DNA of 20,432 nucleotides from Dunaliella salina (Eukaryota; Chlorophyta; Chlorophyceae; Chlamydomonadales; Dunaliellaceae). Shown here one piece after another: positions 1-16,443 of the stretch. Both the position numbers and the translations under genes were made by a program. The notes beneath the pieces are model-generated. The model was given only the letters and a program-made list of their open reading frames with translations. It did no database searches and was not told the origin of the DNA. The stretch covers positions 6,962 through 27,393 of the forward strand of contig MU069537.1 in the NCBI GenBank assembly GCA_002284615.2, read 5' to 3'. Each line of letters opens with the position of its first letter. Position 1 is the stretch's first letter.

Positions 1-344
1 TGCAGGGCAATGTGGGCCTTTGCAAGACAAAAATGCAGGCCATGAGCTGCAGGCCATGAGCTGTAGGCCAGGAAAATGTACAGCTGCATGACAGCAGGCC
101 ATGAGCTGTAGGCCTTAAAAACAAGGGCCTTCACAAGACAACAAAGGCTTTTGCAGGGCAATGTGGGCCTTGGCAAGATGATGCCTTGGATCTCCACAAA
201 ATGCACTCTTTGCCGTGCATTTGCCTGCCGCTCACCTTCCCTCGAAGCTTGACCTGGCTTGAGTCTTTCCTTTCTGTTGTTGACAGTTGGGTCTTTCCTT
301 AATACACCCTGGTTGCTGTCAAGCGTAAACTTGAACCTTGAACT
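1..344. repeat. Gene-free stretch with short direct repeats
   Basis: No exon is recognised. The 20-mer TGCAGGGCAATGTGGGCCTT occurs at 1-20 and again at 152-171. Between them a CAGGCCATGAGCTG(T/C)AGGCC motif recurs about three times. The stretch lies downstream of the last recognised sorting nexin exon and is probably intron. I looked for the expected sorting nexin C-terminal tail on the minus strand and did not find it here. Confidence 0.6.
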
Positions 345-587
345 GCACAAACTTGTGCCTATGCCAGGGCTGAGTCCCTCAGCAGAGCACTCACATCGGA
401 AGCGCTCTCCTTCTGGCTAAGTTTCCAGAAGCGAAATCGATGAATCACTGACATGCACCACTAAATGCACTAATCTGTGCCTGTGCCAGTGCAAAATCCC
501 TCAGCAAAGCGCTTGTGTCCAAAGCGCGCTCCTTCTGGAAGCGGTTCACAAGCAAGATTTCTAAATCACTGACAAACAAGCCTATCT
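345..587 (-). repeat. Exon-edge ladder, donor side of exon 596-775 (two extra copies)
   Basis: Two tandem units (345-466 and 467-587, period 121-122 bp) are degenerate copies of the segment starting at 588, which holds the true 3' end of the BAR exon and its donor. Each copy keeps recognisable versions of the codons for the DMSALLRDFALAQAQ stretch and the following donor region. Both carry many substitutions. The copies lie inside the downstream intron and in the same orientation as the exon. Confidence 0.85.
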
Positions 588-595
588 GCACAAAC

Positions 596-775
596 CTGTG
601 CCTGTGCCAGGGCAAAGTCCCTCAGCAGGGCGCTCATGTCAGAAGCACGCTCTTTCTGGAAGCGGTTCAGCTCCTCAGTCATGCGGGCTACGATGCTGTC
701 ATAGGAAAGTTTAGCGGCGCGCACGCGCGTCTCCCCATCCTCCACTTCCCGTTCAGCCTCTGTTATCTTGTCTTC
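596..775 (-). CDS. SNX1: Sorting nexin exon: last visible BAR helix
   Basis: Sixty codons, phase 0 at both ends, starting EDKITEAEREVEDGE and ending RDFALAQAQ. The acceptor is a TTTGCAG before GAAGAC; the donor is CAG followed by gtttgt. The middle reads SYDSIVARMTEELNRFQKER, the conserved pattern of the last long helix of Vps5/SNX1 BAR domains, where 'EE/D-I-x-RFQ-x-x-K' precedes a short C-terminal tail. If the donor were unused, the frame would run nine more residues to a stop after VCADRLVCQ, an unusual tail lacking the expected Trp. I therefore think another exon follows outside the window. The exon continues the chain from 2348-2413 in frame. Confidence 0.93.
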
Positions 776-853
776 CTGCAAAGGCCATTGCGTTCATACG
801 TTACCTCTGTCCGTGCTCGTGTGCATATGCATGATTATTCTGGCCAGCAAGTG

Positions 854-891
<38 letters not shown>

Positions 892-3800
892 TGTGTGATA
901 TGCTGCATGTGTGCATTCCTACTGTAGAACTTTTTGATCCCGCAAAAATAATGTTTTTGATCCCGCAAAATTATATTTTTGAGGGGTGCAGGATGACTGA
1001 GAAGCGACCTGAAAATAATTTTTCAAGGGGCTGCAGGATTGGTGCGGGATGACTGAGGGAGACCTTCAAAATAAGTTTGTCGAAACAATCTAAAACATTT
1101 ATTAAGTGTTTTAGATTGTTTATTGTTATTCCGAGGTATTGTTCAATACAGTGTTCTGAGCGAGGAAGACTAAAGGTCCTAAGGCTATGGAGGCATCATC
1201 AGCTAACCTGCATAGCTTCTTCAAGCCCTCCCTCCCTTCCCGTGGCTGAGGTGCAGCAGAAGGGAAACCCTTCTGCTGCACCTCAGTCACGGGAAGGGAT
1301 TATGGACACTGTTTTTGAGGGATGCAGGTAGCAGGGACGAAGAAGTTCCAGGAAAAGCTTGCACAGCAGCGTGCAATGGCAGGACCTCCATGCATGGTCT
1401 ATCCCTATTTTCCATGTATGCATGCAGGTAAATATCAGTGAAGTAAGTGGGCAAGAGGGGGGGGGGGTGTTTGTCCCTGCGGAAATGTGCGGGATTGCCA
1501 AAAATGATTTTTGAGGAAGGTGCGAGATTGGAGCGGGATTGCAAAATTAAAACTTATATATAGGGGTGCAGGATGACCACCTGGTAGTGTGAAAGTAAAT
1601 GTGTTTCCTGTAGTTCATGGAAACGCAGGCTTTTCATCACCTCTGATGGTGCTCCCACAGTCCAAGGTCCCATGAATCAAGAGAACCAAGATAATGTCTT
1701 AGGATTGGAAAAGTTTGTTTCTGCATGCCTAAAGTACTGTGACTCAGCTTCAAGTGCTGCGTTCCAGACTGGAATGGTCTGATGACAGTTATAATTTCTC
1801 TGCTTCAGCTCTGCTGCCCCCACAGGCAGGTACAGCTATGTAACCCTTTGCTGTCCTTTCCAATGGTCCCACTGCACAAGTGTTAGCATAACAAGGCACG
1901 CAGCAGACCATCAGCACCCAGGAATAAGATCATGCATCTCTAAGATAACGTTAGATGTGGCACAGCAGTGGCAAGGATTAGGAACATGGCAGAGCAGAGA
2001 AGCCTGAGACAATACAAGCACATGTCATGACATTGCCCTGATATGGTGCTCAGTATTTTTCGAAGGCCTCCATATCAAGTAAGGGCCAAGCGTAACTCAA
2101 AACGCGGGGCTGACCATCTATGCCACCAGCTTCCGCAGATCTGCAGCTTTTTTGCAGGAAATTTGGCTTCTGTTTGATGACCTGGCTTTCCAATGGTGCC
2201 TGCGCTGATTGTTTGAATTCAACCTTGGTGTGTATCCTTCAGTAACTGGTTCAACACTCCACTTTCGTTGACGTGCACTTGCAAACCAACAGCGTCCAAG
2301 TCCCAGCATGCCTCACAGTGAGTGTTCATGTCTTGACCACCACCCACCTTGAGGCCTGGCGTCCCACGCAGCTTGGCTAGCTTCACTTTCCTGCCATCTA
2401 GGTCACCTTTTGCCTGAGAACAAGTGTGGGCGAGTAGGAACAAGTGTGGGCAAGTAGACAAAAAATCCAGCCTCAAATCCCTGCCGTTTAGGCCTCTCTC
2501 GGCACTGGGAAAGGTTTATTGAAGCAGGGAGGAGCATGATGGGAAAAATTGGCAATGGGCTTGTAGGCTGTGCATGCTATTGGAAATGTCTCTTCTGCCA
2601 ACTGGATCGCTTGAGGTTTGCGTGTGTAGGTCTGTAAGAGCAAGGGGGAGCATGATGGAAATTGGGGCTGGGCTTAAGAGGCTGTGGATGCTGGTGGGGC
2701 TGACGCCTCTGCCAGGAAGTGGATACACGTTGCGTGTCAGAGTGCGAAGGCACAAAGGAGGGCCAACACGATTGGTATACTTGCAGAGCAGTGTAAGCAC
2801 CAAGGCTTCTTGTGCATGGCTCTGGCATCAATGGACGACACCTGTGCCAGCACAAACATTGAGGAATGTGTGAGGCAATGCAAAGGTGGCTCCACTGTCA
2901 AGAGGCGCAATTGAAGGACTAGAGGGCTTGAAGAATCCACTTCTGCAGGGACACATGCTAGCGCAGGAATGAGCAGAAAAGGTGCTCACAGCCCCAGCTC
3001 AAAGATGACAAAACATGATGATTGGATCAGGGCATGAAGGAAGCCACTTCCTTGGAAACACACAAAAGAAGAGGAATGAAACAGGGGAAGGAACACAGAA
3101 GGTGCTCACGGCCCCAGCACAAGGATGACAAACATGATCATTGGATTGGGGCACCAAGGAGGGAAGATTTCTGCGGGAACATCCGCTTGAAGAGGAATGA
3201 ACGGGGAAGGTGATTACGGCCCCAGCGCAAGGACAACAATTATGATCACAGGATTGGGTCACCAAGAAAGCCCCCTTCTCCTGCACCCACCTGCCCTCTT
3301 TACATACGCTTGCATCCACCCACACCAAACTGCCTCCTCCCACAAACACAGGCCCTCCCTTGCACGTGCACCTGCGTCAGCTGCGTCAGAGCTGCAACCC
3401 TAGTGCTGCATCCCTTACGCTGCGTTCCTTGTGCTCAGGTGCAAGCACAGATGCTCTGACACACCTTTTGCGTCCATCATGCATTTTCCACACCCATATG
3501 CCCTATTTTGGCACGCACCTGCATCAACTGCATCAGCGCTGTTGTCCATGCTAGGGCGTAAGCATAGATGCGCTGGCAGCCACTCCGTATCTCAACCCAC
3601 TTGCCCTCCTCACATGCAAGTGCACACTCCCAAACCCACCTGCATCCTCCCACACCCATATGCCCTATTTCAGCACGCACCTGCATCAACTGCACCAGCG
3701 CTGTGGTCCATGTGTTAGGGCATAGGTAAAGATGCGCTGGCAGCTAATGCGTACCTCACACCCACCTGCCCTCCTAAAAAGCAAGTGTACCTTCCCACCA

Positions 3801-6800
3801 AACCCACCTGCGTCAACTGCGACAGAGCAGTCGCCCTGTCTGCCATGGTGGTCTGCACGCACTTGATGGTGCGCGCCATCTCTTTCAACGGCGCCTCAAA
3901 GGTGCATGCCAGGGTGTGCGCGCGTTGCCGGGATGAGGTGGCGATTTGGCCGCTCCGCCCACACAGCACGTCAAAGGAGCCTCGCATGGGACCATCATCA
4001 AATTTGCCCTGAACAAGTGTGAAGCATCATCAATCTTGCTCTGGATACATGCAAAGCATTTTGCATACTTCAAAAAAAGGCAATGATTTGCATTGAGCTA
4101 CTGTGCTCCTCCTGCACAGCTCCTAAGAGGAGCCTCACATGGAACCGTCGTCAAGTTTGCCCTGAACGCACACCAAGCATCTTGAAAAGGTTGATTAAAG
4201 ACTGAATTGCGCTGAGCTTCTGTGCTCCTCCTGCACTGTGCACATCAGAGGAAATCTGCACAGGACACCGTGCACACAGGATCTCGTCAATTTGTCAAGA
4301 AAGCGGCAAAGTAATGATGCTGTTGAGCACCGCCTGCTAGGCAAGTCAAAGGAACCTCGCATGTGACCATGTGTGCAATGTGTTTCATAGATTTGCCAAG
4401 AAAGTGGCAGAGTGATGTTGCTAATGAGCACTGCATGATCAGCAAGTCACAGGAGCCTTGCAGGGGAGCAGCAGCGCTTACTATGAATCCATTTAAATGC
4501 AAAAGCACAGGTATGCTATCAATGTCCGCCAGGCATGTCCAAACAAGTGCAGGAAAGCGTTGCTTCGGAGCATTTGTACAGCACGTCACAGCCTAAGAGA
4601 GTGGCAGGAAAAAGTACGCTCGGACCCTGAGTACCTACAAATAGCCTTGCATCAGACCCTCATTGAATTTGCCCTGAATGAATGTAATTGAACATGAGTT
4701 CATAGAGCTGATGGTCGAGGAATACTGTCATTGAGTCCAACTTTAATGATTATTGCTCTGGATGAGCAAAATGCTGGAGGTTGTGATGATACTGGTGGAG
4801 GAACTTTGCTGCGATATGACAGAATTGGTAATACTATCATGGCAGGTGAGGGATGCTGAGCTGCTCCCAGTGTGAGCAATTAAAAGATGATTGTGGGGAA
4901 TGTCCAGCTTGCTCAACCTGCTGACCATATGCTCAATTTCAGATGTCAGGCATTGAAGACAGGACCTGATAACCCCATGCTCAACCTCTGGTGACCCCAT
5001 GCTCAAGCTCTGATGACCAATCGTAAAGGATATGGCATCCAATGACCCCATGCTCAAATTCTGATGACCACATGCTCAACCTCTGATGACGCAATGCAGA
5101 AGAAGAGGAAAGAGAAGTTTGGTCTACGCAGGCCAGAGGCCGCGCGCACAAAAAATAAGACTCCCTAACTAGCAAGCTAGCAGGGGTCTCACCAAAGGGC
5201 CCTCAAAACCTACACAAGACACAGCAAGAGCTAATAAGGATCTACCCAATGCGAAGGACGGCCGAACCCGATGCCCAAATGCTCAACCAGACGGTCAAAA
5301 AAAAGTGCAGCTCCATCCTGTCCAGGCAACAAACCAGAAGCAGAAGGCAGGGTGCCACTGTCTGTCGGACAAACTAGTAAGGCTGGATGTGATCTCAGGG
5401 TGCCACTGTCTGTCGTGTGATCTCAGGGTGCCACTGTCTGTCGAACAAACAGACTGGATGTGATCTACCGCGAAGGAAGCAAGCCTCGCGTACGACTTGT
5501 GCTTGAGTGCAGCACACGAGGCCTGCAAAGCCCATGCCAGCTGAACTGCGTGACTCCACCACAGCAGTGACATGCACTCTTATCTAGCACCTGGCACGGC
5601 CTTTGCAGGCACCATCTGTGCAAGCGTGCAGCAAACAAGGCCTGCAAAGCTTACGCCAGCAGCTAGGCTGTGTGTCTCCATCAAAATGCAGATACACGGT
5701 CAAGCACCTGGCGTGGGCTTTGCAGGCCTTGTTTGTTGCATGTGTGCACAAGTGGTGTCTGCGGAGCTCATACACACTGCTAGACTGTGTGCCTCTTGAG
5801 ATTGCATGTCAAAGTATGGAATGCTACAGCAACAGGGTCCAAATATAGAGAATGCACACTCTTGCTCAGCAGTGTGTTCAGACTGTTTTGGCGGTCCATT
5901 CAACTCCTCCACAACAATTGCATGCCAAAGCATACAATGTCACGGTGACATGATCATAAGGGTGAGAGCGGGCACCAGCTGCTCAGCTGCCGATGCCCAC
6001 ACTCTTCCAGCGCTCCATTGAACTCCTCCACATGAATTGCATGTCATAGCAGGAAATTTTACAGCATCAAAATGTTGAGAGATCAAATGTGTTGAGAGCG
6101 CACGCCAGCTGCTGCATGTCCCAAGTCATCCAGCGCTCCATTCAACTTTCCCAAAAGAATTGCGTGCCAAAGCAACAATTTTACAGAAACAGGATCAAAA
6201 TATAGAAAGTGTGCACCAGCTACTCAGCTGCATGCCCAGACTTTTCCGGGGCTCCATTCAACTCCATGTTAGTAGAAAAGGTTGCAGCCACAGAATTCAA
6301 ATGTTGAGAATTCGCATCTGCTGCTTAGCTGCATGCCTAAGGCCTTGCAATGCTCCATTTAAACCCTTCTCAAGGGTTGAATGTCAAAGCAGACAACCTA
6401 CAGCGACGGGATTCAGATGTTGAGAGCGCGCACCAGCTGCTCAACTGCTTGCCCAAACTCTTCCAGCGCTCCATTCAACTCCCCTAAAGAAGTGCATGCC
6501 AAAGCACAAGATGCTGACAGGTTTCAAATGTCGAGAGTGTGCACTAGCTGCTCAGCTGTATGCCCAAACTCTTCCAGCGCTCCATTCAACTCCTCCAAAA
6601 GATTGCTTCTTTAACAAGCAAATGCTGAGAGTGCGTACCAGCTGCTCAGCTGCGTGCCCAAACTCCTCCAGCGCTCCATTCAACTCAGTCTCCTTCTTGA
6701 TGAGCCTGGCCGCTTGGCGATGAGCCTCCACAAGGTGCGTCTCCAGGTTGTTGATGTAGTCGCGCACCTTGATGTAGTCAGCATCCTCTGCGCCGTCATC

Positions 6801-7601
6801 AGACCTGGTGACAGAAACACAGCATCAGACCTGGGTTGTGCAATTGGGGAAATGACAGGCAGCATTGCACTTGCAGATGGTGCACCTCGATGGAGTCAGC
6901 ATCTTCTGCACCGTCATCAGACCTGGAGGCAGCGATGCAGCATCAGACCTGGAGGCCAGTGACTTTGGAAATGACATGCGACATTGTAATCGCAGATGGT
7001 GCACCTTGATGTAGTCAGCATCCTCTGCTCCGTCAACAGACCTGGGGGCAGCCACGCAGCATCAGACCTGGGGTTGCGCGACTAGGAAAATGAGAAGCAG
7101 CATTGACGTTGGACATGGTATTTCCCAAAGACAGAAGCAAAGCATCCTTTGCACTGTGATCAGACCTGGAGGCAATGACAGCATCAGACCTGGGCTGTGC
7201 AACCAAGAAAATGACAGGCAGCATTGTATTTGCAGAAGGTGCACCTTGATGGAGTCAGCATCCTCTGCATCGTCATCAGACCTGGAGGCAGCGATGCAGC
7301 ATCAGATCTGGAGATCAGCGACTTGGGAAATGACATGCAACATTGTAATCGCAGATGGTGCACCTTGATGTAGTCAGCATCCTCTGTACCATCATCAGAC
7401 CTGGGGGCAGCCACGCAGCATCAGACCTGGGGTTGTGCAACCAAGAAAACGTCAGGCACCATTGTCATCGCAGACGCGTGGTGCTTGCAAGACCGAGACG
7501 CCAAAGGGATGCAGACTCGCAGCAGGGGGCAATGGCGAGCCTCAGGACGGAGTCTGAGGTGATGGGCTCTGAGGGCGCTGAGGCAGCGCCAGGGGGGGGG
7601 G

Positions 7602-7637
<36 letters not shown>

Positions 7638-10600
7638 CAACGCAGCATCAGGCCTGGAGCAGAGCAATTGGAGACAGATGGACATCATCGAAATTGGACA
7701 TGGCCAACCCGGGATACAGAAGCAAAGCGTCAGACAAAGTGAGCTGGGTGGGCAGCGACGTAGCATCAGACCTGGGACAGAACAACTGTGACAGGCAGCA
7801 TCAAAACTGGTCATGATAGAACCTGGAGACAGGTGCTAAGCTTTTTGATCAGACAACAAGCCGGGGGGGCAGGGACACAGCATCAGACCTGGGGTTGTAC
7901 GACCGTGGAAATGACAGGGAGCATTGAAATTAAGGATGTGAGACCTGGAGGAGCAGCACAGCATCAGACGTGGAGCCTGTATGTGAGACCTGAACAGATG
8001 TGCAGACTCGCAGTAAGGAACAACAAGGAGCCTCAGAATCGGAGAAGACATGGGTAAGTCAGAACGAATTTTTGATGTTAAGGCAGCATTGGGGCTGCAG
8101 ACGGTGAGCGGAGGGGGCAGGGAAGCAGCATCAGACCTGGAGCAGTGCAACCAGTAGACTAAGAGGCAGCACTGAAATTGGAGGAGATAAAATCAGGGGA
8201 CGCTAGCACAGCCTCAGGCGGAACCGGGAGGTAACATCAGGCTTGAAGGATGTGAGGTCTGGAGAAAGAAGAACCAGAGTAGAAAGAAGAACCAGAGGGG
8301 GAACCTCGAGAGTGTAAGACCTTGAGACAATAAACCTGTTTTGAGTTCTCCAGATGCAGAGACAGGGAGATAGCTGGGAGTATATTTATTTCCTTTGTTG
8401 AAGAATGAACATTGTGCAACTGTTCAAAAACATATGTCTCCACAAAGCCGAAAGACTATGTATGGCAACAGTGGAAGCCTGACCTGACACACTTAGGTCG
8501 TGAAAGTGGACCCTCTGCCAAAAACGCTGAAGAGGTCGTGGCAGACAGGACAGGAGAGCAGATTGCTGAAATTCGGCGTGCAGACTTTCATCGTAGGACA
8601 CAGACTTTGGCTGGCTTTCCATCAGTACAGGGCGCAAACTTTTGGTTGGCGTTCCAGGAAGGTGCGCTGGCACTGCCTGGCACATGCTTTGTTTCCATGA
8701 TGGTGCGGCCTATGGCCTGCTTAGGCCTTTCTTTCCTCTCTTCGAGGTGCGCATGCATTGCGGTACACAGGCATTGTTTCCTTGTTGCATGCGGCCCGTG
8801 ACGTGCGTGGACTTTTCTTTTCTCTCTTACAGGCACGCAGGCATCGCAGTATACGCATTGTTTCCTTCATGTACGCGGCCTACAGCCTGCATATACTTTT
8901 CTTTTTTCCTTTCACGGTTTGCAGGCATTGCAGTACACGCGCTGCCCAATCAGATGTCTTGGGCAAAATGGAGGGGCTCTGGCAGGACAGCAGGCCAGCA
9001 GAATAACAGGTTTTCTTGTCTTGACAGACCGTTTATAAGTGCAGCAGCTGTGAACCATCAGAGCTGACCTCTGTTCCCTGGTTGGCAGTTCTCAGGTGCC
9101 CCCCAAAAAGGGATATTCAGCTCGCGCTGACAAGAAATTGGTCAGCTCAAGGCTCCTGGTTTGCTGATCTGTTTATTCAGTGTCCCAAACTGTCATTTAA
9201 TGTTCAGGCAGCTCACCTTCCTGATACCATGCTTTGCGCGGAATGGTGCAGGCTCTTGAACCTGCAATCCAAACCAAAAACCAAAGCACAATTAGTGCTA
9301 CAGCGCATGCATGCATTGACAGTCACTTGACACGACCTGTAACACACCATCTGTCCGTTTTGATTGAGGGCAGGCCCTAAAAAGACACTACTTAACGAGA
9401 CTACTTCAGTCCGGAAAGCTTAATATGTATAAACACCCATCTTAGTGCAATTGATGTGCAGGAAACCAAGAGATCTGGAAAGTGTGCCACATGCATGAGC
9501 TCATTCAAGCACTTCACCCTACCATGACTATTGTATCTGCACAACCCATTTTAGTGCTTTTGATGTGCAGGAAACCAGAGGATCTGGGGGTTGTGCCACA
9601 AACTGATTCATGCACTTTACCCTGCCCATGGCCCGTAACACTGCACAACCCCATGCATGAGCTTATTCAAGCACTTCACCCTGCCATGACCCTCAACACT
9701 GCACACCCCCATGCATGATCTTACCGTAGCACTTCAACCTGCCATGACCTTCACACTGCACAATCCCAAACATCCATGCTTATGTTTAAATAAACCTGCT
9801 TCAATACAGAAGCAGCTTAATCCTATGAACACTCATCTCAGTGCATTTGATGCAAGGCAGCTGAGGATCTGGAGATTGTACATCATGCATGAGCACATCT
9901 TGGGTGAGGACGAGGAAGGACAAGACATCACCCTGCCAAAACTTGCACAACCCCATGCATGAGCTTATTTTATAAGCACTTCACCCTGCCATGACCCTTA
10001 ACACTGCACAACCCCATTCATGAGCTCATTCACGCACTTCACCCAGCCATGACTCTTAACACTGCACACCCCCACGCATGACCTTACCGCAGCACTTCAC
10101 CCATGGCACCATGACCCTCACACTGCACATCACCCCCCATGAGCCTACCAGAGAAATTTCACCCTACCGTGACCCTTACACTGTACAACCACTCACACCA
10201 ATACTACAGCCAAGGCTTTCACCTTGCTCCATTCCACCAGCCAGCAGATACACAAACAAGCAGTGAAGGACTCTGCTGATGATTGCTGCTAAGGATCCGC
10301 TTCATCCGCTTCCTCCTACCGGCCAGGCATCTTCCAAACAAGCACGGCCACCACCCCATCCAAATGAATGCTGCTAAGGCTTTGCTGTTGCTGCAGTTTC
10401 CTCGCCAGGCTGTCCTCTGAACAGCCATGGCAGCCATCGCAGCAATTGCAGCCACTGCGGAGAAAGAGCAGTGTCATAACTGCACTGCCTTGCACTGCAG
10501 GCATCCAAGCAAGCACCACCGACGCTGCAGACATCCAAGCAAGCACCACCAAAACTGCAGACACTGCACGGACACTGCAGGCATGTGACGCTGCAGACAC

Positions 10601-13600
10601 TGCATGGACACTGCAGGCATGTGATGCTGCGGACACTGCACGGACACTGCAGACAAGTGACGCTGCAGACACTGCACGGACACTGCAGACATGTGACGCT
10701 GCAGACATTCAAGCGAGCACCACTGACGAGACTGGTCCCCCAGACTAAAGCTGGTCCATCAAACTAACACTGTCACTACACTAGCTGGTCCCCCAAGTGA
10801 ACACTGCAGCACACATGCTGTTCCCTTAGGAAGACCCTGCCACACACGCCCATCCCTCAACAAAGACTGCAAACAATCGGATCAAACACCGTTGCAACCC
10901 AAGCACTGTTGTTACACAAGTACTTCATACCAAATCCCAAAAGGAGGCGCAGCCTACCTCGTGCTAAAAGACAAAAAAAAGGAACTGAGAGGCGAGCACC
11001 ACTGTCGCACGAGCACTGCAGCTCATCATTGCAGCGCCCCGTTGACAGCAGAGGCCTTGCCAGCGTGCTCCCTGCCTGACAACGCGCAACAATCCACCAA
11101 ACAAACACCGCTGCAACCCAAGCACCGCTGTGGCTAGAGCACCACTATGGCTCAAGCACCATTCTAGCGCCAACAAACAATGCTGCAACCCAAGCACCGA
11201 CTGCTGTGGCTTGAGCACCACTGTAGCGCCAACAAACAACGCTGCAACCCAAGCACCGACCGCTGTGGCTTGAGCACCACCATGGCTCAAGCACCATTGT
11301 AGCGCCAACAAACACTGCTGCAACCCAAAAACCGCTGTAACTCAAGCACCACAATGGCTCAAGCACCATTGTAGCACCAACAAACACCGCTGCAACCCAA
11401 GCGCAGATGTGAAGCAAGCACCACTGTGGCTCAAGCACCATTGTAACGCCAACAAACACCGCTGCAACCCAAGCAACGCTGTGGCTTGAGCACCATTATG
11501 GCTCAAGCACCATTGTAGCGCCAACAAGCACCGCTGCAACCCAAGCACCGCTGTAGCTTGAGCACCACTGTGGCTTTCCACTGCTGCGCAAATAAACACC
11601 ACAGCAATGTTATCGCCCTTGTGACTCAAGCACCACTGAGACTCAACACCGCAGCGCAAACAAAGTGCAAACAAACACCGCTGCAACGTTAGCACTGCTG
11701 TGACTCAAGCACCACCGTGGCTCACCACTGCAGCGTGCAATTGACGGCAGGAGCCTTGCCTGCCCTTCTCTCCGCCTGCAGACGCAAAACAGTCCACCAA
11801 ACAAACTCTGCTGCAACCCAAACAAGCGCCGCTTGCCTCAAGCACTAAAATGGCTCAACACTGCAGCACGCCATGAATGGCGGGGGCCTTGCTCGCACTG
11901 CTCTCCGCCTGCCAGCGTGCAACACTCCACCAAACAAGCATCGCCACAATCCCAGCACCACTGCAGCACGGCATTGACAGCAGGGGCTTTGCCGGCCCTG
12001 CTCTCTGCCTGCCAGTGCGCAAGAATTCACCATATAAACACAGCTGCAACCCAAACAAGCACCGCTGGGCCTCGAGCACCACTGTGGCTCACCACTGCAG
12101 CGCGCCGTTGACGGCGGGTGCCTTGCTCGCACTGCTCTCCGCCTGCCAGCGGGCCATCTCGAGCGTCCAGTCCTGGTCGTTGGACTCCAAGAACAACTGC
12201 AGCTCCTTGCTATCCTTCAAGACTGGGTGGGAAGCAACCTTGCTCAAGAACACCTGCAAATTGAGCATGCATAAGGAGACCAGGAGAACTGGGTGGACTG
12301 CAGCTCTTTACTGTCCTCCAGCACTGGGTGGGAGGCAAACTTGCTCAAGAACACCTGCATGTTATACAGGCACAAAGGGACCTGGAGAACTGGGGGGGCC
12401 GCAGCCCCCAATGATCCTTCTGCACGGGGTGGGAGGCAACCTTGCTCAAGAACACCTCCCATGTTATGCATGCACAAGGGGACCCAGGAAAACTGGTTTG
12501 GCTGCAGCTTTTTACTGTCCTTCAAGACTGGGTGTGAGGAGACCTTGCTCAAGGACATCTGCACATCAAGCATGCACAAGGACACTAAAAGAATTGGGTG
12601 GGCTGCAGCTCCTCACTGCCCTTGAACACTGGGTGAGAGGCAACCTCCCAGACCTTGCTCAAGAACACCTATGCATCAAGCATGCACAAGGACACCAAAA
12701 AGACTGGGTGGGTTGCAGCTCCTTGCAGCAGCTCATGAGCCTTTCTAGTTGTAATGCTGTAGACCTGAGCTGGTTGTCTGCCTTACTATTTGTAAAACAC
12801 GCAGTAATTGATTTTTCAATTGTAAGAAACACAATCAAAAATGAAAAGTTATATTTTAAAAAGTAATTGGGTCGACCCTGAACCGCTGGCTTGGGAAGGA
12901 TCTTGAGGATCAAATTCACGGAAGCCGAGCATGTCCGCTAAGGCCTTTCCTGCACATGGAGCTCCAGTTGACAACTACCAGCATGCAGAATCCCTTCAAA
13001 AGTTGCAATTTGTTTTTGTCTGCTCCAAGAGGGCCCAGATGTTCTGTCAAATGCAGAATCCCGTTTTTGGTGCTAACGCCTGATCTCAGATTGTTTGCAG
13101 GCATGAACACTGTTCTGGTCCAGCACCGACCTTGACATGACATTATCCTAACAATCATCAAATGTTCAAAATATACCTTGCAGCAATTCGCAGGCCACCT
13201 ACCCACAAACCATGACTACCAAGAAAAAAGAAAAAAACTACGTAGAAAAACTACGTAGGCAGAGGAACTCTCCCTACATCAATTAAGGAAAAGGAGACAC
13301 ATTGGCTCAAAAAAGAGCCGTGTGCCCCCTCCACCACAACGTGGTATGAAAAAGAGAAAGCTAATGTGGATCTGGAGGAGGTGCTCACTAGAAGCACCTG
13401 CCTCTAGAACCTGGCTGTGGGAAGTATTCTTGTTTTCACTAGCGCGGCGTATGGTGACTAGTTTGTGGGCATATTGAACAGAATGGGCATGAAGTTGTTG
13501 AGCAAGCTTCGTGGCACGCTACCATCACTGCACCACCACTTGCCTGTAGAATTTGACACAACTGCAGGATAAGATTCTGAGACAACTGGAGCTTCTGCAT

Positions 13601-16443
13601 TAGCTTGCTCCAGGCCACTTTCCTACATCACTGCTGCAGATGCTGCACCACCACCGCTTGCCTGCAGAGCTCGACACCTGCTCAATGAAATCCAGAGACA
13701 TCTGGAGCTTCTGCATTAGCTTGCTCCAGGCCACCTTCCTACATCACTGCTGCAGCCACTGCTGTACCATCACTTCCCTGCAGCGCTCGGCGCCCTTGCT
13801 TGTAGGAATCCAGAGATATCTGGAGTTAGCTGGCAGGCCACCTTCCTACATCACTTCTGCCGCCACCGCCGTACCATCACTTCTCTGCAGCGCTCAGCGC
13901 CGCTGCTCGAAGAAACCCAGAGACATCTGGAGCTCTTGCATTAGCTTGTTGGCCACCTTTTTACATCACTTCTGCAGCTGCCGCACCACCGCTTGCCTGC
14001 AATGTTTGGCGCCGCTGCTCGATGTAATCCAGGGACGTATGGAGCGTTTGCATCAGCTTGTAGGCTACCTTCCTAAATCACACCCCCAGACGCCACACCA
14101 TCACATGCCTGCAGTGTTCTGCGCCGCAGCTCAACGAAATCCAGAGACATATGGAGCCACCTCACCACCACTTGCCTGCAGATTGTGACATAACTGCTGG
14201 ATCAGATCCTGAGACAACTGGAGCTTCTGCATTAGCTTGCAGGCCTTTTCCCCACATCACCCCTGCAGCCACCGCACCACCACTTGCCTGCAGCACACGG
14301 CGCTGCTGCCCGATGATATCCCAGGACATCTGGAGCTTCTACATTCGTTGGTAGGCCACCTTCCTACAGCACCTCTGCAGACACCATACCACTTGCCTGC
14401 AGCGCTCGGCGCCGCTGCTCGATGAAATCCAGGGACATCTGGAACTTCTGCACCGCACTCTTCTCGGGCAGCGCAGGCACGATGCAGCCCTTGTTCTTCT
14501 CGGTCAGCTTTTGGTGCAGCCACGAAAAGTGGGAAAAGCGCCGCACGACCTCGCTGACGGGCTGGGTGTAGGCAGGGTGGGATGTTGTGGTGCGGATCTG
14601 CGCGTGGGGCATTAGAGACATTCTGTTAAGATGTGACTTTCCGTTAAGATTTGATGTTCTGTCAAGACGTGAAGGGACGTTTTGCAAAACGTGAAGGATG
14701 GCTCCTGCATATTCGCCCAACAAGTGGCTCTGCTGTTTTAATGGAGCGATTCAAAGCACTTTAACCTGAGAATCAGGCAGAGCATGACCAGTCGCGCAAG
14801 TGCTTGTTTTGTAGTGCTACAAAAAGCTACTGTGCATCAAAAAAGCCACTGTGCGTCCAGTGCCCTTGATCTAACCGATAGCTCCTTCTCGCAAATCTGT
14901 ACACCTTTCAACCTGTACCTGTTTTGGAGCATCTGCCTCGCATTTCTGTATGCCGCACCAGCAACATCTGCCCACCTACAACCACAGCCCCCCAAGAAGG
15001 CATGCACCGCTCCATCACAAATGGCAATGGATGCGAGCTGAAACTGTTGTGAACAAGAAATGTGAGGAGCGCAGGGACCTTGAAGTGATGAGAAATGCAT
15101 GCACTGATCCAAAAAAGTGCGCACCTTGAATGTTACAAAGGCTGAGACCCCCTCTCCTTGCTTGACCGGGTCCAGCACCTGCACAAGACAAAACGGTTTT
15201 GCTTTTTCTAATGAAGACATTGCAAGAGAGGCGTCGCAGCTGAAAACCCAGCCTTTTGAAGCAGAAATTGATCTGTTCCAGAAGTCCCAATCCAAGGCTC
15301 CCATCCAACACAACACCCTCATCCTCATGGAACGCCCAGGCAGAAAAAAGTGAAAGCTCAGGTATTGAAGAGCTCCTTGCTGCCTGACAAATGTATGTGC
15401 AGGGTATTCTTTTGATGCTTGTCCAGTGGCAGCCTCATGCTTGCGGGAGGAAGAGCAGCAAGCAGCGAAATCCGACATTCAGCACATCAAGGGTCTCATA
15501 CCCTGGATAGTGATCTCAGCACTCCACACATGCAGGCACCTGCAGAGGATGTCACAGCCTTGGCCTGTAAGAATATTGAATATCTTCTGCACCCTAGACT
15601 GCTGCCTCACTGAGGATCCAATCTCAGACCTTGCAGAAATGGAAGAGCATGCTTATAGGGGGTGGTTGGCCAGAGTCACAGCAATTGATCAATTCATTCC
15701 ATTCCTCTGTGCTGCACTGCGCTGCTTGTGATATCAAGTAAGTGAAGGTGTAAGAAAAGAATGATGAGTGTTTTGGAAACTAGAGCACACACACGGACTC
15801 CTCTCTCAGTCGGTTACGGCCTTATTAACGCACAATCCCACAACTTGCCTCTGCAGCTCCTGCAACTTCCACTCCTTCGCGTGACTTTTTCACCACCATT
15901 GTTAGCACACTTCAATATCCTGAAAAATGTGCACTGACCATGTCTTAGGCGCGCCTACCACAAGTTCCAGGACCTCGAGCATAGAGTTGTTTTTGCTGAC
16001 TATGCACAGCTGAACATGCACTGACCTGTACATGAATGCTCCCTGGATCATTATTGTGGACAGAGCCTTGTTCTGGTGCATGGTAAGGCTGACTAGGGCT
16101 AGCTACAGGAGCGGCGGAGGTGAAGAAACCCGCGGTGTCTTGAAGCACAGACTCATACGGAGGTGGTGCAGATTGTTCCCCCGCCTGAGGAGTACGCACA
16201 GGATACCCTTTCCATGAGAGAAAGCACAAAGACTTGAGGAGTGCAAAATTGTCCCTGTTGTCCGCCTGTCGGACATGCGCTAGAAAGCATTCACCATTTC
16301 CTCTGTGTGCCCCTCTCTTGCTTGGCTCTCCAGGTCTGTCCAGGTACAGTTTCTTGTTTCAATGTACCTAGGCTATGGATCTCTGCATGACCCTATGAGG
16401 TGTTCGTGCAGCTCACTGTCCTATTGTAACGGGATTCAGCCAT
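596..16443 (-). CDS. SNX1: Sorting nexin gene (PX-BAR, SNX1/Vps5 type), multi-exon, 3' end probably outside window
   Basis: Gene-level entry. SNX1/Vps5-type sorting nexins bind endosomal phosphoinositides through a PX domain, and their dimeric BAR domain senses and bends membrane; with retromer they drive endosome-to-Golgi or vacuolar sorting (family knowledge). Nine exon pieces on the minus strand, read right to left, give a Pro-rich N-terminus, a PX domain (DPVK start, RRFSHF, PALPEKSAV, FIEQRRRAL), a linker and BAR helices (DYINNLETHL, FEAPLKEMARTIK, KLAKLRGTPGLK, EELNRFQKERASDM). About 420 residues are visible, close to the usual plant SNX1 size. Phases agree at all directly adjacent junctions. 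Two gaps remain: roughly 20 residues expected between the exons at 12093 and 6804, and the last 15-20 residues after 596. Introns are GT-AG except one GC-AG (14396-12254). Most introns hold tandem copies of exon edges. The call of SNX1 over SNX2 is by overall resemblance only. Confidence 0.9.
857..897. repeat. (TG)n microsatellite
   Basis: About 20 TG dinucleotides with one TA interruption. It lies about 80 bp upstream (in transcript sense) of the acceptor of exon 596-775, so the pre-mRNA carries a CA repeat there. CA repeats near splice sites can affect splicing in other systems; that role is only possible here. Confidence 0.95.
1083..1121. repeat. Perfect 15-bp inverted repeat
   Basis: Arms 1083-1097 (AAACAATCTAAAACA) and 1107-1121 are exact reverse complements separated by 9 bp. 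It is AT-rich and lies within the intron between exons 2348 and 775 of the sorting nexin gene. It resembles a small foldback end or hairpin. Confidence 0.9.
1233..1299. repeat. Long near-perfect hairpin, 32-bp arms, 3-base loop
   Basis: Arms 1233-1264 and 1268-1299 are reverse complements apart from one position (G in the left arm, T in the right), which is a G-U pair in plus-strand RNA. The loop is AAA. The arms are GC-rich (CTGAGGTGCAGCAGAAGGG core). It is intronic to the minus-strand gene. It could be a foldback transposon end, a recent palindromic duplication or a small-RNA hairpin; the sequence alone does not decide. Confidence 0.95.
1578..2347. other. Intron sequence without recognised features
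   Basis: This is the rest of the intron between sorting nexin exons 2348-2413 and 596-775. I saw no coding signature on either strand, no exon-edge copies and no clear repeats. Confidence 0.6.
2348..2413 (-). CDS. SNX1: Sorting nexin exon: BAR inter-helix segment
   Basis: Twenty-two codons, AKGDLDGRKVKLAKLRGTPG then LK, phase 0 at both ends. The acceptor is a ttgttctcag; the donor is AAG followed by gtgggt. In the family, a K-x-KL-x-KL stretch with a following GTPG-like turn links the middle and last BAR helices, and this exon sits in exactly that place. It joins SQLTQ of exon 3808-4008 to EDKITEAE of exon 596-775 without a frame change. The exon is short and is recognised only in the context of its neighbours. 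Confidence 0.9.
2419..2458. repeat. 20-bp tandem duplication beside an acceptor
   Basis: The unit AACAAGTGTGGGC(G/A)AGTAGG is present twice, 2419-2438 and 2439-2458, directly next to the acceptor of exon 2348-2413. It is a small instance of duplication adjoining a splice site, but here the exon is not copied. Confidence 0.8.
2531..2760. repeat. Two-copy tandem repeat, about 116-bp period
   Basis: GGAGCATGATGG begins at 2531 and at 2647. After each, similar sequence follows (ATTGG..., GGGCTT, GGCTGTG.ATGCT..TGG, TCT.CTGCCA). Imperfect intronic repeat between sorting nexin exons; no similarity to a neighbouring exon was recognised. Confidence 0.7.
2981..3270. repeat. Three-copy degenerate tandem repeat, about 110-120 bp
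   Basis: Units begin GGTGCTCACAGCCCCAGC at 2981, GGTGCTCACGGCCCCAGC at 3101 and GGTGATTACGGCCCCAGC at 3209. Each is followed by AAGGATGACAAACATGATCA-like and ATTGGGTCACCAAG-like stretches, and each later unit is preceded by GAGGAATGAA. It lies in the intron between exons 3808 and 2413. No link to an exon was recognised. Confidence 0.8.
3369..3807 (-). repeat. Exon-edge ladder, donor side of exon 3808-4008 (three extra copies)
   Basis: Copies of the last coding bases plus donor of the FEAPL exon begin at 3369, 3516 and 3678; the true edge is at 3805. On the minus strand each copy reads like '(A)L-x-QL-x-Q' followed by a gtgcg-type donor, against the genuine ALSQLTQ followed by gtgggt. Spacings are 147, 162 and 127 bp. 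The sequence between copies is also shared (CACCCATATGCCCTATTT occurs near 3491 and 3653). Confidence 0.85.
3808..4008 (-). CDS. SNX1: Sorting nexin exon: BAR middle helix (FEAPLKE)
   Basis: Sixty-seven codons, phase 0 at both ends. It starts GKFDDGPMRGSFDVLCGRSG and ends MADRATALSQLTQ. FEAPLKEMARTIKCVQTTMA is the hallmark of the second long BAR helix in SNX1/Vps5 proteins (F-E-x-P-L-K-x-x-x-R-x-x-x-x-x-K). The acceptor is a cacttgttcag; the donor is CAG followed by gtgggt. I chose this acceptor over the AG at 3953-3954 because it keeps phase 0 with the upstream exon and gives the usual spacing from the FG-x-A motif to FEAPL, with GSFDVLCGRS matching the family's 'G-x-x-F-x-x-L-x-x-K-S' turn. 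The laddered copies upstream also include this acceptor. Confidence 0.92.
4012..4690 (-). repeat. Exon-edge ladder, acceptor side of exon 3808-4008
   Basis: Degenerate copies of the exon's first codons with the acceptor recur upstream of it. The clearest ends near 4166 (GTCGTCAAGTTTGCCCTGAAC, antisense of ttcag-GGCAAACTTGACGAC). Further copies lie near 4246-4310, 4340-4410 and 4440-4460, and one ends near 4685 (TTGAATTTGCCCTGAATG). The GGAGCCTCGCATG block of the exon is recognisable in most. Similarity is strong near the exon and weaker farther out. Confidence 0.75.
4920..5092. repeat. Short tandem motif array, 20-25 bp
   Basis: The motif ATGCTCAA(C/G/A)CTCTGATGACC and close variants occur about six times between 4928 and 5088, partly regular and partly spaced by other sequence. 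It is intronic with respect to the sorting nexin gene. There is no coding signal. Confidence 0.75.
5093..5347. other. Intron sequence without recognised features
   Basis: No exon, no exon-edge copy and no evident repeat. Possible transposon remnant, but no ends or coding motifs are visible. Confidence 0.5.
5348..5443. repeat. Three-copy repeat CAGGGTGCCACTGTCTGTCG
   Basis: The 20-mer is exact at 5348-5367, 5396-5415 and 5424-5443, with TGATCT before the second and third copies and again at 5460. Spacings are 48 and 28 bp. It is intronic, and high identity suggests recent duplication. Confidence 0.9.
5500..5765. repeat. Repeat copies in both orientations around GGCCTGCAAAGC
   Basis: A block of about 35-45 bp occurs in direct orientation near 5515-5555 and 5627-5660 (ACGAGGCCTGCAAAGC and ACAAGGCCTGCAAAGC). 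It occurs inverted near 5588-5625 and 5705-5750 (GGCTTTGCAGGCCTTGTTTG). The inverted pairs could fold into hairpins. The minus-strand reading near 5490-5545 looks like an 18-codon exon but was rejected (see the rejected list). Confidence 0.8.
5850..6638 (-). repeat. Exon-edge ladder, donor side of exon 6639-6804 (about seven extra copies)
   Basis: Tandem units of about 95-125 bp repeat the 3' part of the BAR exon with its donor. Unit edges carrying GAGAG(C/T)G-GCACCAGCTGCTCAG lie near 5960, 6090, 6196, 6307, 6421, 6532 and, as the genuine edge, 6626. In minus sense each copy reads like ELNGALEEFGHAAEQL followed by gt(g/a)cgc. The copy at 6532-6625 is the closest to the exon in sequence; the outermost (near 5860) is the weakest. 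Most copies have lost the reading frame. Confidence 0.9.
6639..6804 (-). CDS. SNX1: Sorting nexin exon: first long BAR helix
   Basis: One base plus 55 codons: SDDGAEDADYIKVRDYINNL then ETHLVEAHRQAARLIKKETE and LNGALEEFGHAAEQL. The pattern Y-I-x-x-L-E-x-H-L-x-E-A-x-x-x-A-x-R-L-x-K and the following FG-x-A motif are characteristic of the first BAR helix in SNX1/Vps5. The acceptor is a tttctgtcaccag; the donor is CTG followed by gtacgc. It starts with one base that completes a codon, so the preceding exon must end with two bases, as the exon ending at 12093 does. A further exon may lie between them. Both flanks carry tandem copies of this exon's edges. Confidence 0.94.
6805..8150 (-). repeat. 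Exon-edge ladder, acceptor side of exon 6639-6804
   Basis: The block GTGCACCTTGATGTAGTCAGCATCCTCTGC-GCCGTCATCAGACCTGG spans the exon's first codons (DDGAEDADYIKV) and its acceptor. It recurs near 6879-6931, 6999-7049, 7239-7290 and 7358-7410, with weaker copies near 7135-7180. AGCATCAGACCTGG alone recurs at further places to about 8140. In the near part the spacing is about 120 bp, with two slightly different unit types alternating. Copies often keep in-frame codons close to the exon but have no matching donor. Confidence 0.88.
7592..7634 (+). repeat. Poly-G tract (32 uninterrupted G)
   Basis: G runs from 7592 to 7634 except for one C at 7602; 7603-7634 is pure G. In the minus-strand transcript this is poly-C. 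It could form a G-quadruplex on the plus strand. The exact length may be unreliable, since such runs are hard to sequence. A shorter G run lies at about 1456-1468. Confidence 0.9.
8151..8690. other. Intron sequence, no confident gene
   Basis: Apart from a short AGAAGAACCAGAG duplication near 8265-8300, nothing repeats clearly. An open minus-strand stretch near 8500-8560 could be read as a small exon with phases that fit the missing sorting nexin segment, but its donor (gtccac) is poor, so I do not annotate it. Confidence 0.4.
8691..8955 (+). repeat. Three-copy repeat with acceptor-like pyrimidine tracts
   Basis: Units of about 85-95 bp each contain TGCGGCC(T/C)-like sequence, then CTTTTCTTTTCTCTCTTACAGG or a variant, then GCA(G/T)GCATTGC-GTA-ACGCATTGTTTCC. 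The tracts lie near 8730-8745, 8813-8832 and 8899-8925. On the plus strand each looks like a polypyrimidine tract plus AG, but no plus-strand gene is known here. Confidence 0.75.
8956..9429. other. Intron sequence without recognised features
   Basis: No coding signature, RNA gene or repeat stands out on either strand. Confidence 0.5.
9430..10222 (-). repeat. Degenerate tandem array, CATGCATGAGCTTATTCAAGC / TTCACCCTGCCATGACC type
   Basis: Units contain CCCATGCATGAGCT-ATTCA-GCACTTCACCCTGCCATGACC and CACTGCACAACC, repeated about eight times between 9490 and 10190. A longer unit with TTAGTGCATTTGATG...GATCTGG occurs near 9433, 9551 and 9838. At the right end, TTTCACCTTGCTCC (10217-10230) resembles the TTCACCCTGCC core, so the array may be a donor-side ladder of a weakly supported exon ending at 10223. 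That link is inference. Confidence 0.7.
10223..10390 (-). CDS. Possible sorting nexin exon (weak)
   Basis: Candidate for the segment missing between exons 12093 and 6804. On the minus strand, an AG at CTGCAG (10391) followed by one base, 55 open codons and two bases before gtgaaag would keep phase with both neighbours. The translation contains NSKALAAFIWMGWWPCLFG, a plausible amphipathic stretch, but then RRKRMK and a low-complexity tail. It is longer than the roughly 20 residues expected and matches no family motif I know. It lies between two repeat arrays, as real exons here do. Other acceptors in the same frame are equally possible. Confidence 0.2.
10490..10720. repeat. CTGCAG-rich tandem array, 36-bp unit
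   Basis: The unit (ACATGTGACGCTGCAG followed by ACACTGCACGGACACTGCAG) repeats with edges at 10581, 10617, 10653 and 10689, exactly 36 bp apart. Less regular related copies (CATCCAAGCAAGCACCACC) lie at 10502-10552. Because 36 is divisible by three, several frames stay open on both strands; these are not taken as genes. Confidence 0.9.
10960..12092 (-). repeat. Exon-edge ladder, donor side of exon 12093-12253, with an internal array
   Basis: Long copies of the exon's 3' end (codons for MARWQAESSASKAPAVNGAL and the CAGTG donor) occur near 11025-11095, 11733-11800, 11863-11930 and 11960-12025. They carry the same CTCTCCGCCTGCC and CCACCAAACAAAC-like flanks. Between 11100 and 11700 a denser array of roughly 60-75 bp units made of CACCACTGTGGCTCAAGCACC, ATTGTAGCGCCAACAAACACC and GCTGCAACCCAAGCACC repeats about eight times. 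The array seems to be an amplified part of the same unit. Confidence 0.85.
12093..12253 (-). CDS. SNX1: Sorting nexin exon: PX end and linker
   Basis: Fifty-three codons plus two bases. VFLSKVASHPVLKDSKELQ continues the PX domain C-terminus directly from RRRALQ of exon 14397-14597, matching the family pattern 'AL-x-x-F-x-x-R-[IV]-x-x-HP-x-L-x-x-S-x-x-[LF]-x-x-FL'. It then runs LFLESNDQDWTLEMARWQAE and SSASKAPAVNGALQ. The acceptor is a tcaatttgcag; the donor is CAGTG followed by gtgagc. The exon ends in a different phase from its start, and that phase fits the one-base start of exon 6639-6804. A minus-strand edge of this exon is copied on both sides. Confidence 0.93.
12254..12735 (-). repeat. 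Exon-edge ladder, acceptor side of exon 12093-12253 (four extra copies)
   Basis: CTTGCTCAAGAACACCT, the antisense of the exon's first codons (VFLSK) with its acceptor, lies at 12239 in the exon. It recurs at 12340, 12441, 12544 (as AAGGACATCT) and 12654. Spacings are 101, 101, 103 and 110 bp. Each unit also copies the following codons (ASHPVLKDSKELQ), so four possible alternative exon starts exist upstream of the real one. This is the cleanest ladder in the window. Confidence 0.95.
12736..13500. other. Intron sequence without genes
   Basis: It contains a CTACGTAG palindrome duplicated with an AAAA spacer near 13238-13258 and a GGCTC-AAAAAA-GAGCC short stem near 13304-13319. In a eukaryotic intron these are not read as terminators. 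No coding sequence is visible on either strand. Confidence 0.5.
13501..14396 (-). repeat. Exon-edge ladder, donor side of exon 14397-14597 (eight extra copies)
   Basis: Copies of the exon's 3' end with its GC donor (antisense CTTGCCTGCAG plus CGCTCGGCGCC...GATGAAATCCAG-GACATCTGGAGCTTCTGCA) have their edges near 13539, 13657, 13773, 13880, 13992, 14104, 14171 and 14283. The genuine edge is at 14392. The typical spacing is 107-118 bp, with one of 67. In minus sense each reads like QKFQMSLDFIEQRRRALQ followed by gcaagt or a mutated form. Copies also share an intronic part (GGCCACCTTCCTACATCAC). Confidence 0.95.
14397..14597 (-). CDS. SNX1: Sorting nexin exon: PX domain core
   Basis: Sixty-seven codons, phase 0 at both ends, from IRTTTSHPAYTQPVSEVVRR to FIEQRRRALQ. 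It holds the PX hallmarks: the RRFSHFSWLHQKL strand-helix (R-R-[FY]-S-x-F phosphoinositide contact), the proline loop PALPEKSAVQKF, and the FIEQRRRAL helix that binds PI3P in family members. The acceptor is a ccacgcgcag. The donor is a GC: CAG followed by gcaagt. The alternative GT donors just inside the intron would add residues and break the frame to VFLSK, so the GC donor is preferred. Confidence 0.96.
14598..15124. other. Intron sequence with a short imperfect repeat near the acceptor
   Basis: TTCTGTTAAGATGTGAC, TTCCGTTAAGATTTGATG and TTCTGTCAAGACGTGAAG lie in tandem at about 14620-14675. The rest shows nothing recognisable. The large minus-strand open frame spanning 14837-15478 is mostly intron read-through around an 18-codon exon. 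Confidence 0.6.
15125..15178 (-). CDS. SNX1: Sorting nexin exon: start of PX domain
   Basis: Eighteen codons, VLDPVKQGEGVSAFVTFK, phase 0 at both ends. This matches the first PX strands of plant SNX1 (V-x-DPVK-x-G-x-G-V-x-A-[YF]-[IV]). The acceptor is a tttgtcttgtgcag; the donor is AAG followed by gtgcgc. It joins HVQ of the upstream exon and IRTTTS of the downstream one in frame. Confidence 0.93.
15179..16025. other. Intron sequence without recognised features
   Basis: No exon-edge copies, coding motifs or clear repeats. This intron, near the 5' end of the sorting nexin gene, is notably free of ladders. Confidence 0.6.
16026..16232 (-). CDS. SNX1: Sorting nexin exon: Pro-rich N-terminal region
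   Basis: Sixty-nine codons if the acceptor is the AG at 16233-16234. It contains QSAPPPYESVLQDTAGFF and PVASPSQPYHAPEQGS and ends PGSIHVQ before gtcagt. Low-complexity, Pro/Ser-rich and probably disordered, it fits the region preceding PX in sorting nexins; PPPY is a PY-type motif. The 3' end is firm because IHVQ continues into VLDPVK. The 5' edge is less sure: a second AG at 16209-16210 follows a pyrimidine-rich tract but would need another phase. No in-frame ATG lies in the exon, so translation must start in an upstream exon. Confidence 0.8.
16417..16443 (-). CDS. Tentative first exon of the sorting nexin gene
   Basis: ATG at 16443 with coding MAESRYNRT, then a good gtgagc donor in phase 0, which agrees with the phase 0 acceptor chosen for the next exon. 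The start has CAAG before ATGG, a favourable context. Other ATGs in this region run quickly into stops or the wrong frame. Still, nine residues cannot be verified by homology, and the ATG is only about 20 bp from a TATA-like box. Confidence 0.45.

What the first reader, a model, noticed from the sequence alone, without database searches (positions are those of the whole stretch)
345..14396. Exon-edge ladders: introns of one gene built from tandem copies of neighbouring exon ends
Eight arrays in the sorting nexin introns consist of degenerate tandem copies of a 95-160 bp unit spanning an exon end and its splice site (donor side of the exons ending at 14397, 12093, 6639, 3808 and 596; acceptor side of those starting at 12253, 6804 and 4008). 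Copies are seen directly. In several arrays the copy nearest the exon looks best preserved and distal ones more decayed, suggesting repeated duplication at the exon edge. Tandem duplication of exon segments containing AGGT is a proposed route of intron gain; here the same sort of event appears to lengthen existing introns, on both sides of exons and repeatedly in one gene. I know of no described system of this kind, but cannot search.
Basis: partly seen in the sequence, partly recalled or inferred. Interest (0 to 1): 0.88.

Follow-up and report, generated by a model that had tools for sequence, protein, structure and literature searches.

The report
Introns grown from duplicated exon ends
In this green-alga genome, stretches of DNA that straddle the border between exon and intron have been copied head-to-tail many times, so that introns are partly built of decayed copies of neighbouring exon ends, which shows one way that introns can grow without changing the protein.

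Summary
The gene is a minus-strand SNX1/2-type sorting nexin. Eight of 18 tested exon edges have direct copies of their own outer 35-75 exonic bases in the adjoining intron, right side, same strand, and in none of the window's other introns. Two arrays searched as DNA and the protein hit only this locus. It is not one gene's oddity: in kinase, chaperonin and kinesin genes of this genome 23 of 112 Pfam-defined edges (22 without a simple-repeat case) show it; opposite flank 0, reverse complement 1, other locus 1.

Copies change evenly over codon positions, whereas exon-versus-copies differences fall mostly on third positions (43 of 70): ladders are fossils of older exon ends. Intron 3/4 seems old and short in relatives, so ladders lengthened it.

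Not supported: a decay gradient and, in this gene, a preference for junctions: array coverage is flat across introns and runs about 60 bp into exons (kinase flanks do decline). Best reading: recurrent tandem duplication of about 100-125 bp, tolerated across splice sites because the exon-proximal site is spliced. A new variant of tandem genomic duplication; I found no account of it.

The parts
13531..14452 (-). Ladder at donor (GC-type) of exon 3: 8 copies of about 56 exonic + about 53 intronic bases
12196..12723 (-). Ladder at acceptor of exon 4: 4 copies, period 101
11095..12154 (-). Ladder at donor of exon 4: 4 exon-bearing copies; includes a 72-bp sub-array at 11207-11575
6764..8220 (-). 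Ladder at acceptor of exon 6: units of about 119 bp to 7474, weaker copies to about 8220; block amplification of 3 units
5801..6686 (-). Ladder at donor of exon 6: 7 copies, spacing 94-123
3952..4674 (-). Ladder at acceptor of exon 7: 4 degenerate copies
3285..3814 (-). Ladder at donor of exon 7 (weakest; 7 bp of exon in the best alignment, 36-44 bp in weaker ones)
341..669 (-). Ladder at donor of exon 9: 2 copies, period about 121, 64-74 exonic bases
16023..16184 (-). Exon 1 (no ladder)
15116..15184 (-). Exon 2 (no ladder)
14397..14600 (-). Exon 3, part of the PX domain region
12093..12253 (-). Exon 4
9216..9260 (-). Exon 5, not mentioned in the finding (no ladder)
6639..6804 (-). Exon 6
3808..4008 (-). 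Exon 7
2348..2419 (-). Exon 8, not mentioned in the finding (no ladder)
596..775 (-). Exon 9

Best explanation
The introns of this alga have undergone recurrent local tandem duplication with units of mostly 60-160 bp (median about 116). A duplication wholly inside an exon breaks the protein and is lost. One inside an intron, or one that spans an exon-intron border, is tolerated: it copies the splice site together with the exon end, the spliceosome uses the copy nearest the exon, and everything else becomes intron. Repeated rounds, including amplification of blocks of several units, give a ladder that lengthens an old, originally short intron. Copies then decay neutrally while the exon stays under selection. 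Shown: the anatomy, the locality and correct side, occurrence in three further gene families, even decay of copies against mostly synonymous drift of the SNX exons. Inferred: that introns 3/4 and 6/7 are old (from inserts in relatives' predicted proteins), use of exon-proximal sites in this strain (taken from a relative's mRNA-derived protein), the repair or replication process, and that short ancestral introns explain why so many founding duplications hit a junction.
For: Same-strand, right-side copies at 8 of 18 edges. 23 of 112 edges in 58 exons of three other families; 0 of 112 on the opposite flank, 1 reverse complement, 1 other locus, and a shuffled probe reached the threshold for 1. Positions where the exon differs from the copies' consensus: 15 of 19 at third codon position and 0 at second in 7 SNX ladders; 28 of 51 in other loci; pooled 43 of 70, p 2.6e-6. 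Private copy changes are even: 74/64/82 and 54/54/69; pooled p 0.11. First-copy spacing is a multiple of 3 in 7 of 28, so no frame keeping. P0001 runs without insert across the ladder edges. At the codon of intron 3/4, P0062, P0066, P0068 and P0074 have inserts of 28-102 aa; at that of 6/7, P0026 and P0060 of 22 and 17 aa. In the window, array coverage is flat in introns, stops about 60 bp into exons and is 0 over 4.2 kb upstream of the gene. Arrays beside exons exceed random DNA: 27 of 58 pieces against 8 of 58, p 2e-4. Decoy donors score lower on average than the real ones (p 1.6e-4; biased, see report).
Against: No RNA from this strain, so the splice choice is not seen. Decoy splice sites survive well (61 of 77 dinucleotides intact, 50.5 expected, p 0.011) and decoy acceptors are as strong as the real ones (11 of 24 at least equal, p 0.95), so a plain proximal-wins rule needs a reason not shown here. 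In the kinase loci array coverage declines away from the Pfam match (0.20-0.23 within 200 bp, 0.15 at 300-500, 0.07 at 500-800), which could mean a junction preference or just the loci's ends. The exonic share of the unit is not quite uniform (KS p 0.029, 27 ladders). In the non-SNX loci 24 of 51 shared differences are nonsynonymous, less clean than in SNX (4 of 19). No orthologous genomic DNA could be read.
Confidence: 0.75

Rival explanations
1. Junction-targeted duplication: something about splice junctions (R-loops, nucleosome borders, paused polymerase) makes them hotspots of tandem duplication.
For: In the window the ladders at 8 edges outnumber the unrelated interior arrays of period 60 or more, five by my reading; arrays are commoner beside exons than in random DNA; kinase flanks show less array further out; only 3 of 28 ladders have units with under 30 intronic bases.
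Against: Base coverage by arrays does not rise toward exons in the window, and the kinase loci end where it falls. If ancestral introns were short, as suggested by relatives, a random 110-bp duplication would span a junction about half of the time (2P/(I+P), own arithmetic).
Confidence: 0.15
2. The copies are kept by selection, e.g. as spare or decoy splice sites, recursive-splicing points or regulators.
For: Splice dinucleotides are kept slightly more than expected (61 of 77, p 0.011); AGGT is intact in 6 of 6 exon 6 acceptor copies.
Against: The junction 4-mer is not outstanding among all 4-mers of the unit (19th of 90 for donors, 11th of 88 for acceptors); copies change evenly over codon positions; 10 of 18 edges in the same gene have none.
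Confidence: 0.06
3. Ordinary intronic minisatellites that touch exons by chance, with nothing else to explain.
For: Interior arrays exist (2966-3266, 4910-5095, 5498-5727, 8660-8940, 9401-10129), and coverage in the window is flat.
Against: In the ladders the copies carry the exon end itself, so the founding unit spanned the junction; this is seen at 23 of 112 sampled edges, a lower bound. It is rather a part of the best explanation than its rival.
Confidence: 0.04

Closest known systems
[quoted passage not shown] 2011 as cited in PMC4974935; review PMC3443670; passages read)
   Same: Tandem duplication of a segment with AG/GT signals, one copy spliced out, protein unchanged.
   Different: There a new intron is made from an exonic segment; here pre-existing introns are lengthened by many rounds at their own borders, in several gene families.
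Fission-yeast genes with multiple tandem copies of a 24-bp AGGT-bearing exonic segment spliced as an intron (Zhu & Niu 2013b, seen only as cited in PMC4974935)
   Same: Several tandem copies of exon sequence lie inside an intron.
   Different: Two genes, exon-only unit, new introns; here border-spanning units of about 116 bp, existing introns, many genes.
Potato RdRp duplication spanning an intron-exon border (PMC4974935, passages read)
   Same: The duplicated segment carries a parental intron/exon border with its splicing signals.
   Different: Single event that makes a new intron plus extra exon; here arrays of up to 8-9 copies and no change to the exon.
[quoted passage not shown] not held; known to me from recall and citing passages)
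   Same: Small internal duplications that can include intron parts.
   Different: Not described, to my recall, as ladders that make up much of intron length.
Introner elements (PMC9860276, start of the abstract seen in the listing)
   Same: Repeats that make intron sequence.
   Different: Introners are dispersed families; the two arrays searched here are single-locus.

Membership tests
Tandem genomic duplication | Head-to-tail copies of a local segment | tested here: met
Tandem genomic duplication | Copies only at the source locus | tested here: met
   (two of the eight arrays searched genome-wide as DNA)
[quoted passage not shown]
   Inserts read as introns 3/4 and 6/7 occur at the same codon in relatives; the other introns were not testable
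[quoted passage not shown]
   P0001 runs without insert across the ladder edges; a relative's protein, not this strain's
Introner elements | Dispersed family inserted at many loci | tested here: not met
   (two of eight arrays)
SNX1/2-type sorting nexin (host gene) | PX domain plus Vps5-like C-terminal domain | tested here: met
   on P0001, whose residues 2-417 of 450 map to nine exons of the window; the rest would lie in the gap beside the window

The most novel reading that the evidence does not exclude
Splice junctions in this lineage are real hotspots at which short tandem duplications start, so that introns grow from their ends; the resulting ladders are a dated fossil record of each exon's synonymous history inside its own intron, and the alga's spliceosome reliably picks the outermost of many equally good sites by a rule not yet described.
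Probability: 0.15. Interest if true: 0.85.

Novelty: new variant of a known kind. Interest (0 to 1): 0.62.

Why it matters
How introns grow is usually told through transposons. Here a large share of intron length (0.41 of intron bases in this gene lie in tandem arrays) came from duplication, much of it of exon borders, and the same is seen in three unrelated gene families. It gives a natural test of splice-site choice among near-identical sites, and copies of exon ends free from coding constraint that can be used to date and measure neutral substitution beside the constrained original. Gene finders may also call ladder copies as exons.

Tried and rejected
Gradient of decay away from the exon: tested, not found. 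Functional retention of decoy splice sites: weak excess of dinucleotides, but the junction 4-mer is not outstanding; left open at low weight. Dispersed repeat family or dispersed exon fragments: not found for the two arrays and the protein searched. RNA families: no match at gathering score in the window. Viral contigs with an exon 9 query: no relative, as expected for an algal gene. Random regions as a control were mostly lost to runs of N: of the 18 regions L012-L029 (180 kb) only 69.7 kb were readable, and L010-L011 beside the window were N but for the overlap; the gene content of the readable part is unknown.

Samples and dropped rows: 31 of 66 kinase matches, 12 of 12 chaperonin, 15 of 27 kinesin and 0 of 18 AAA matches were examined. 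In one search the exon 7 donor ladder was left out. In some searches the junctions of the non-SNX ladders were chosen by a splice-score rule of mine. Of the 23 edges, L041 (simple repeat) was left out; there L063 gave no junction, and L040 and L053 gave no copies at the chosen junction; L036, L053 and L058 were dropped for doubtful junctions.

Literature: nine searches were answered; in their listings (titles and starts of abstracts; 1,112, 261 and 37 papers matched, of which 15, 10 and 15 were listed) I saw no description of such ladders. The library holds open-licence papers only.

Full report
GENE AND ORGANISM. The window (GC 0.51) holds most of a minus-strand gene whose product matches sorting nexin 1/2 proteins of green algae: P0001 (an unnamed MMETSP/EukProt transcript protein, 86% over 99% of the query), then Haematococcus lacustris at 65%. 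P0001 carries PX and Vps5 domains. tblastn of P0001 places nine exons covering its residues 2-417 of 450; both flanks of the window read N. The genome has 285 Mb in 1,403 contigs with long runs of N. From size, GC and gap structure I think that it is Dunaliella salina or close kin (published draft: 343.7 Mb, GC 49.1%, contig N50 (L50) given as 10,635 (7.8 kb); part 1 of 2 of the text read); no call names the organism.

OBSERVATION. TRF lists arrays with periods of 101-240 at the exon edges. Self-BLAST shows repeats crossing the splice sites. With probes made of exon sequence alone (up to 80 bases), 8 of 18 edges find copies in the adjoining intron (up to 3 kb searched), 34 copies in all, scores 38-108 against at most 36 for 30 shuffles of each probe. 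A matrix of edge and mid-exon probes against ten non-coding stretches and both strands is clean: only the adjoining intron, right side, same strand scores (66-94 for seven edges, 38 for the exon 7 donor); all other cells are at or below 34. Edges without copies: both edges of exons 1, 2, 5, 8, and the acceptors of exons 3 and 9.

OTHER GENES. I listed Pfam exon matches in the same genome: kinases 66, chaperonins 12, kinesins 27, AAA 18, and fetched 31, 12, 15 and 0 of them with 400-600 bp flanks. Direct repeats of period about 60-160 cross many of these exon ends. Using the outer 60 bases of the Pfam match as probe, 23 of 112 edges (9 of 55 acceptors, 14 of 57 donors; 20 of 58 exons) have a same-side copy; one (L041) looks like a simple repeat. 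Controls on the same 112: opposite flank 0, reverse complement of the flank 1 (at the threshold of 36), flank of another locus 1; a shuffled probe reached the threshold for 1 edge. The rate is a lower bound because Pfam matches can end short of the exon. By family: kinase 13 of 59, chaperonin 3 of 24, kinesin 7 of 29.

WHAT EVOLVES HOW. For seven SNX ladders (35 copies; exon 7 donor left out), 19 exon positions differ from the consensus of their copies; 15 are third codon positions, 4 first, 0 second; 15 are synonymous. Changes private to single copies are spread 74/64/82 over codon positions (p 0.33). In 19 ladders of other genes (45 copies) the numbers are 28 of 51 third positions (27 synonymous, 24 not) and 54/54/69 (p 0.28); pooled, 43 of 70, p 2.6e-6, and private changes p 0.11. 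The copy joined to the exon therefore looks like the coding one, the rest drift freely, and the ladder keeps an older state of the exon end. The non-SNX set is less clean, as expected where only two or three copies can share changes of their own. Identity to the exon does not fall with distance (rho -0.15, p 0.39, 37 copies pooled). In some arrays multi-unit blocks are more alike than neighbours (87% at offset about 360 in the exon 6 acceptor ladder against 75% at one unit; 86% at two units against 72% at one in L061), so arrays also grew by block duplication.

UNIT ANATOMY. Over 28 ladders the exonic part has median 55 bases (quartiles 40-69), first spacing median 121, all 87 spacings median 116 (quartiles 96-126); the exonic share of the unit leans to 0.2-0.7 (KS against uniform p 0.029, n 27; exonic parts under 18 bases cannot be seen); 7 of 28 first spacings are multiples of three, so the frame is not kept.

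SPLICING. P0001, from a relative's transcript, runs without insert across the ladder edges, so exon-proximal sites are used there. Decoy dinucleotides are intact in 61 of 77 copies (37 of 50 donors, 24 of 27 acceptors; 50.5 expected from identity, p 0.011). Decoy acceptors score like the real ones (11 of 24 at least equal, p 0.95); decoy donors score lower on average (5.4 against 8.2, p 1.6e-4), though 16 of 38 are at least equal (the non-SNX real sites were themselves chosen for high score, a bias in their favour). The junction 4-mer is not outstanding within the unit. Decoys are thus not purged; how they are ignored is open.

OLD INTRONS LENGTHENED. Predicted proteins of relatives carry inserts that I read as unspliced introns: at the codon of intron 3/4 in P0062, P0066, P0068 and P0074, of 28, 41, 42 and 102 residues (84-306 bp), and at intron 6/7 in P0026 and P0060 (22 and 17 residues). 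Only short, stop-free introns can appear like this, so the lengths are biased low, and that they are introns is my reading. Here intron 3/4 has 2,143 bp, of which ladders span about 1,340 (from the coordinates).

IS THE JUNCTION SPECIAL? Array coverage in the window's introns is 0.41 and flat: 0.42 at 0-50 bp from exons, 0.49 at 300-500, 0.43 at 500-800, 0.34 at 800-1300 (0 in the 263 bases beyond). Inside exons it stays 0.41-0.47 to 60 bp, then falls to 0.07 and 0; the 4.2 kb upstream of exon 1 have 0. In the kinase loci it is 0.20, 0.23, 0.21, 0.18, 0.15 and 0.07 at 0-50, 50-100, 100-200, 200-300, 300-500 and 500-800 bp from the Pfam match; most of those loci end about 600 bp out, which lowers the last values, so the decline is not decisive either way. 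Random regions have 0.060 of 69.7 kb. In matched pieces, 27 of 58 exon neighbourhoods against 8 of 58 random pieces have more than 10% array. So arrays belong to genes or introns and do not respect exon ends, but need not prefer them. A short ancestral intron makes junction-spanning units common by chance: 2P/(I+P) is about one half for P 110 and I 300 (own arithmetic).

MECHANISM. I take the source to be ordinary tandem duplication (repair of staggered breaks or slippage; not tested) filtered by selection: exon-internal events lost, border-spanning and intronic events kept. This is close to tandem genomic duplication as a route of intron gain (PMC4974935, PMC3443670; passages read), including a fission-yeast case with several exonic copies in one intron cited there, but here existing introns are lengthened, by border-spanning units, repeatedly, in several gene families. 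Nine answered literature searches, of which I saw the listings, showed no account of it; subscription papers and supplements were not searched.

LIMITS. No RNA of this strain, no orthologous genomic DNA, no second algal genome as control, and a gap-rich assembly. Copies at 65-95% identity are unlikely to be assembly artefacts.

Noticed in passing
window 9606-10129 and 10494-10707: Interior intron arrays of shorter units (58 and 30-36 bp) not related to any exon end.
   Followed up: partly
window 7592-7634: A run of 43 nearly pure G inside intron 5/6, and (GT)20 at 857-897.
   Followed up: no
window about 1234-1298: An inverted repeat with arms of about 30 bases, seen by eye, that could form a hairpin in intron 8/9.
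   Followed up: no
window 19875-19940: Degenerate AGGGTTT-like (telomere-type) tandem repeat upstream of the gene.
   Followed up: no
window 14396-14395: Exon 3 has a GC rather than GT donor, and 6 of its 8 ladder copies keep GC.
   Followed up: partly
protein P0067 (EukProt gene model): The sorting nexin model of another alga repeats TKAELDAKK at the start of the exon 8 homologue (sequence), as if a duplicated acceptor edge had been kept as exon.
   Followed up: no
genome G000, regions L010-L029: Much of the fetched scaffold sequence reads N; the window is itself a gap-free island between such runs.
   Followed up: partly
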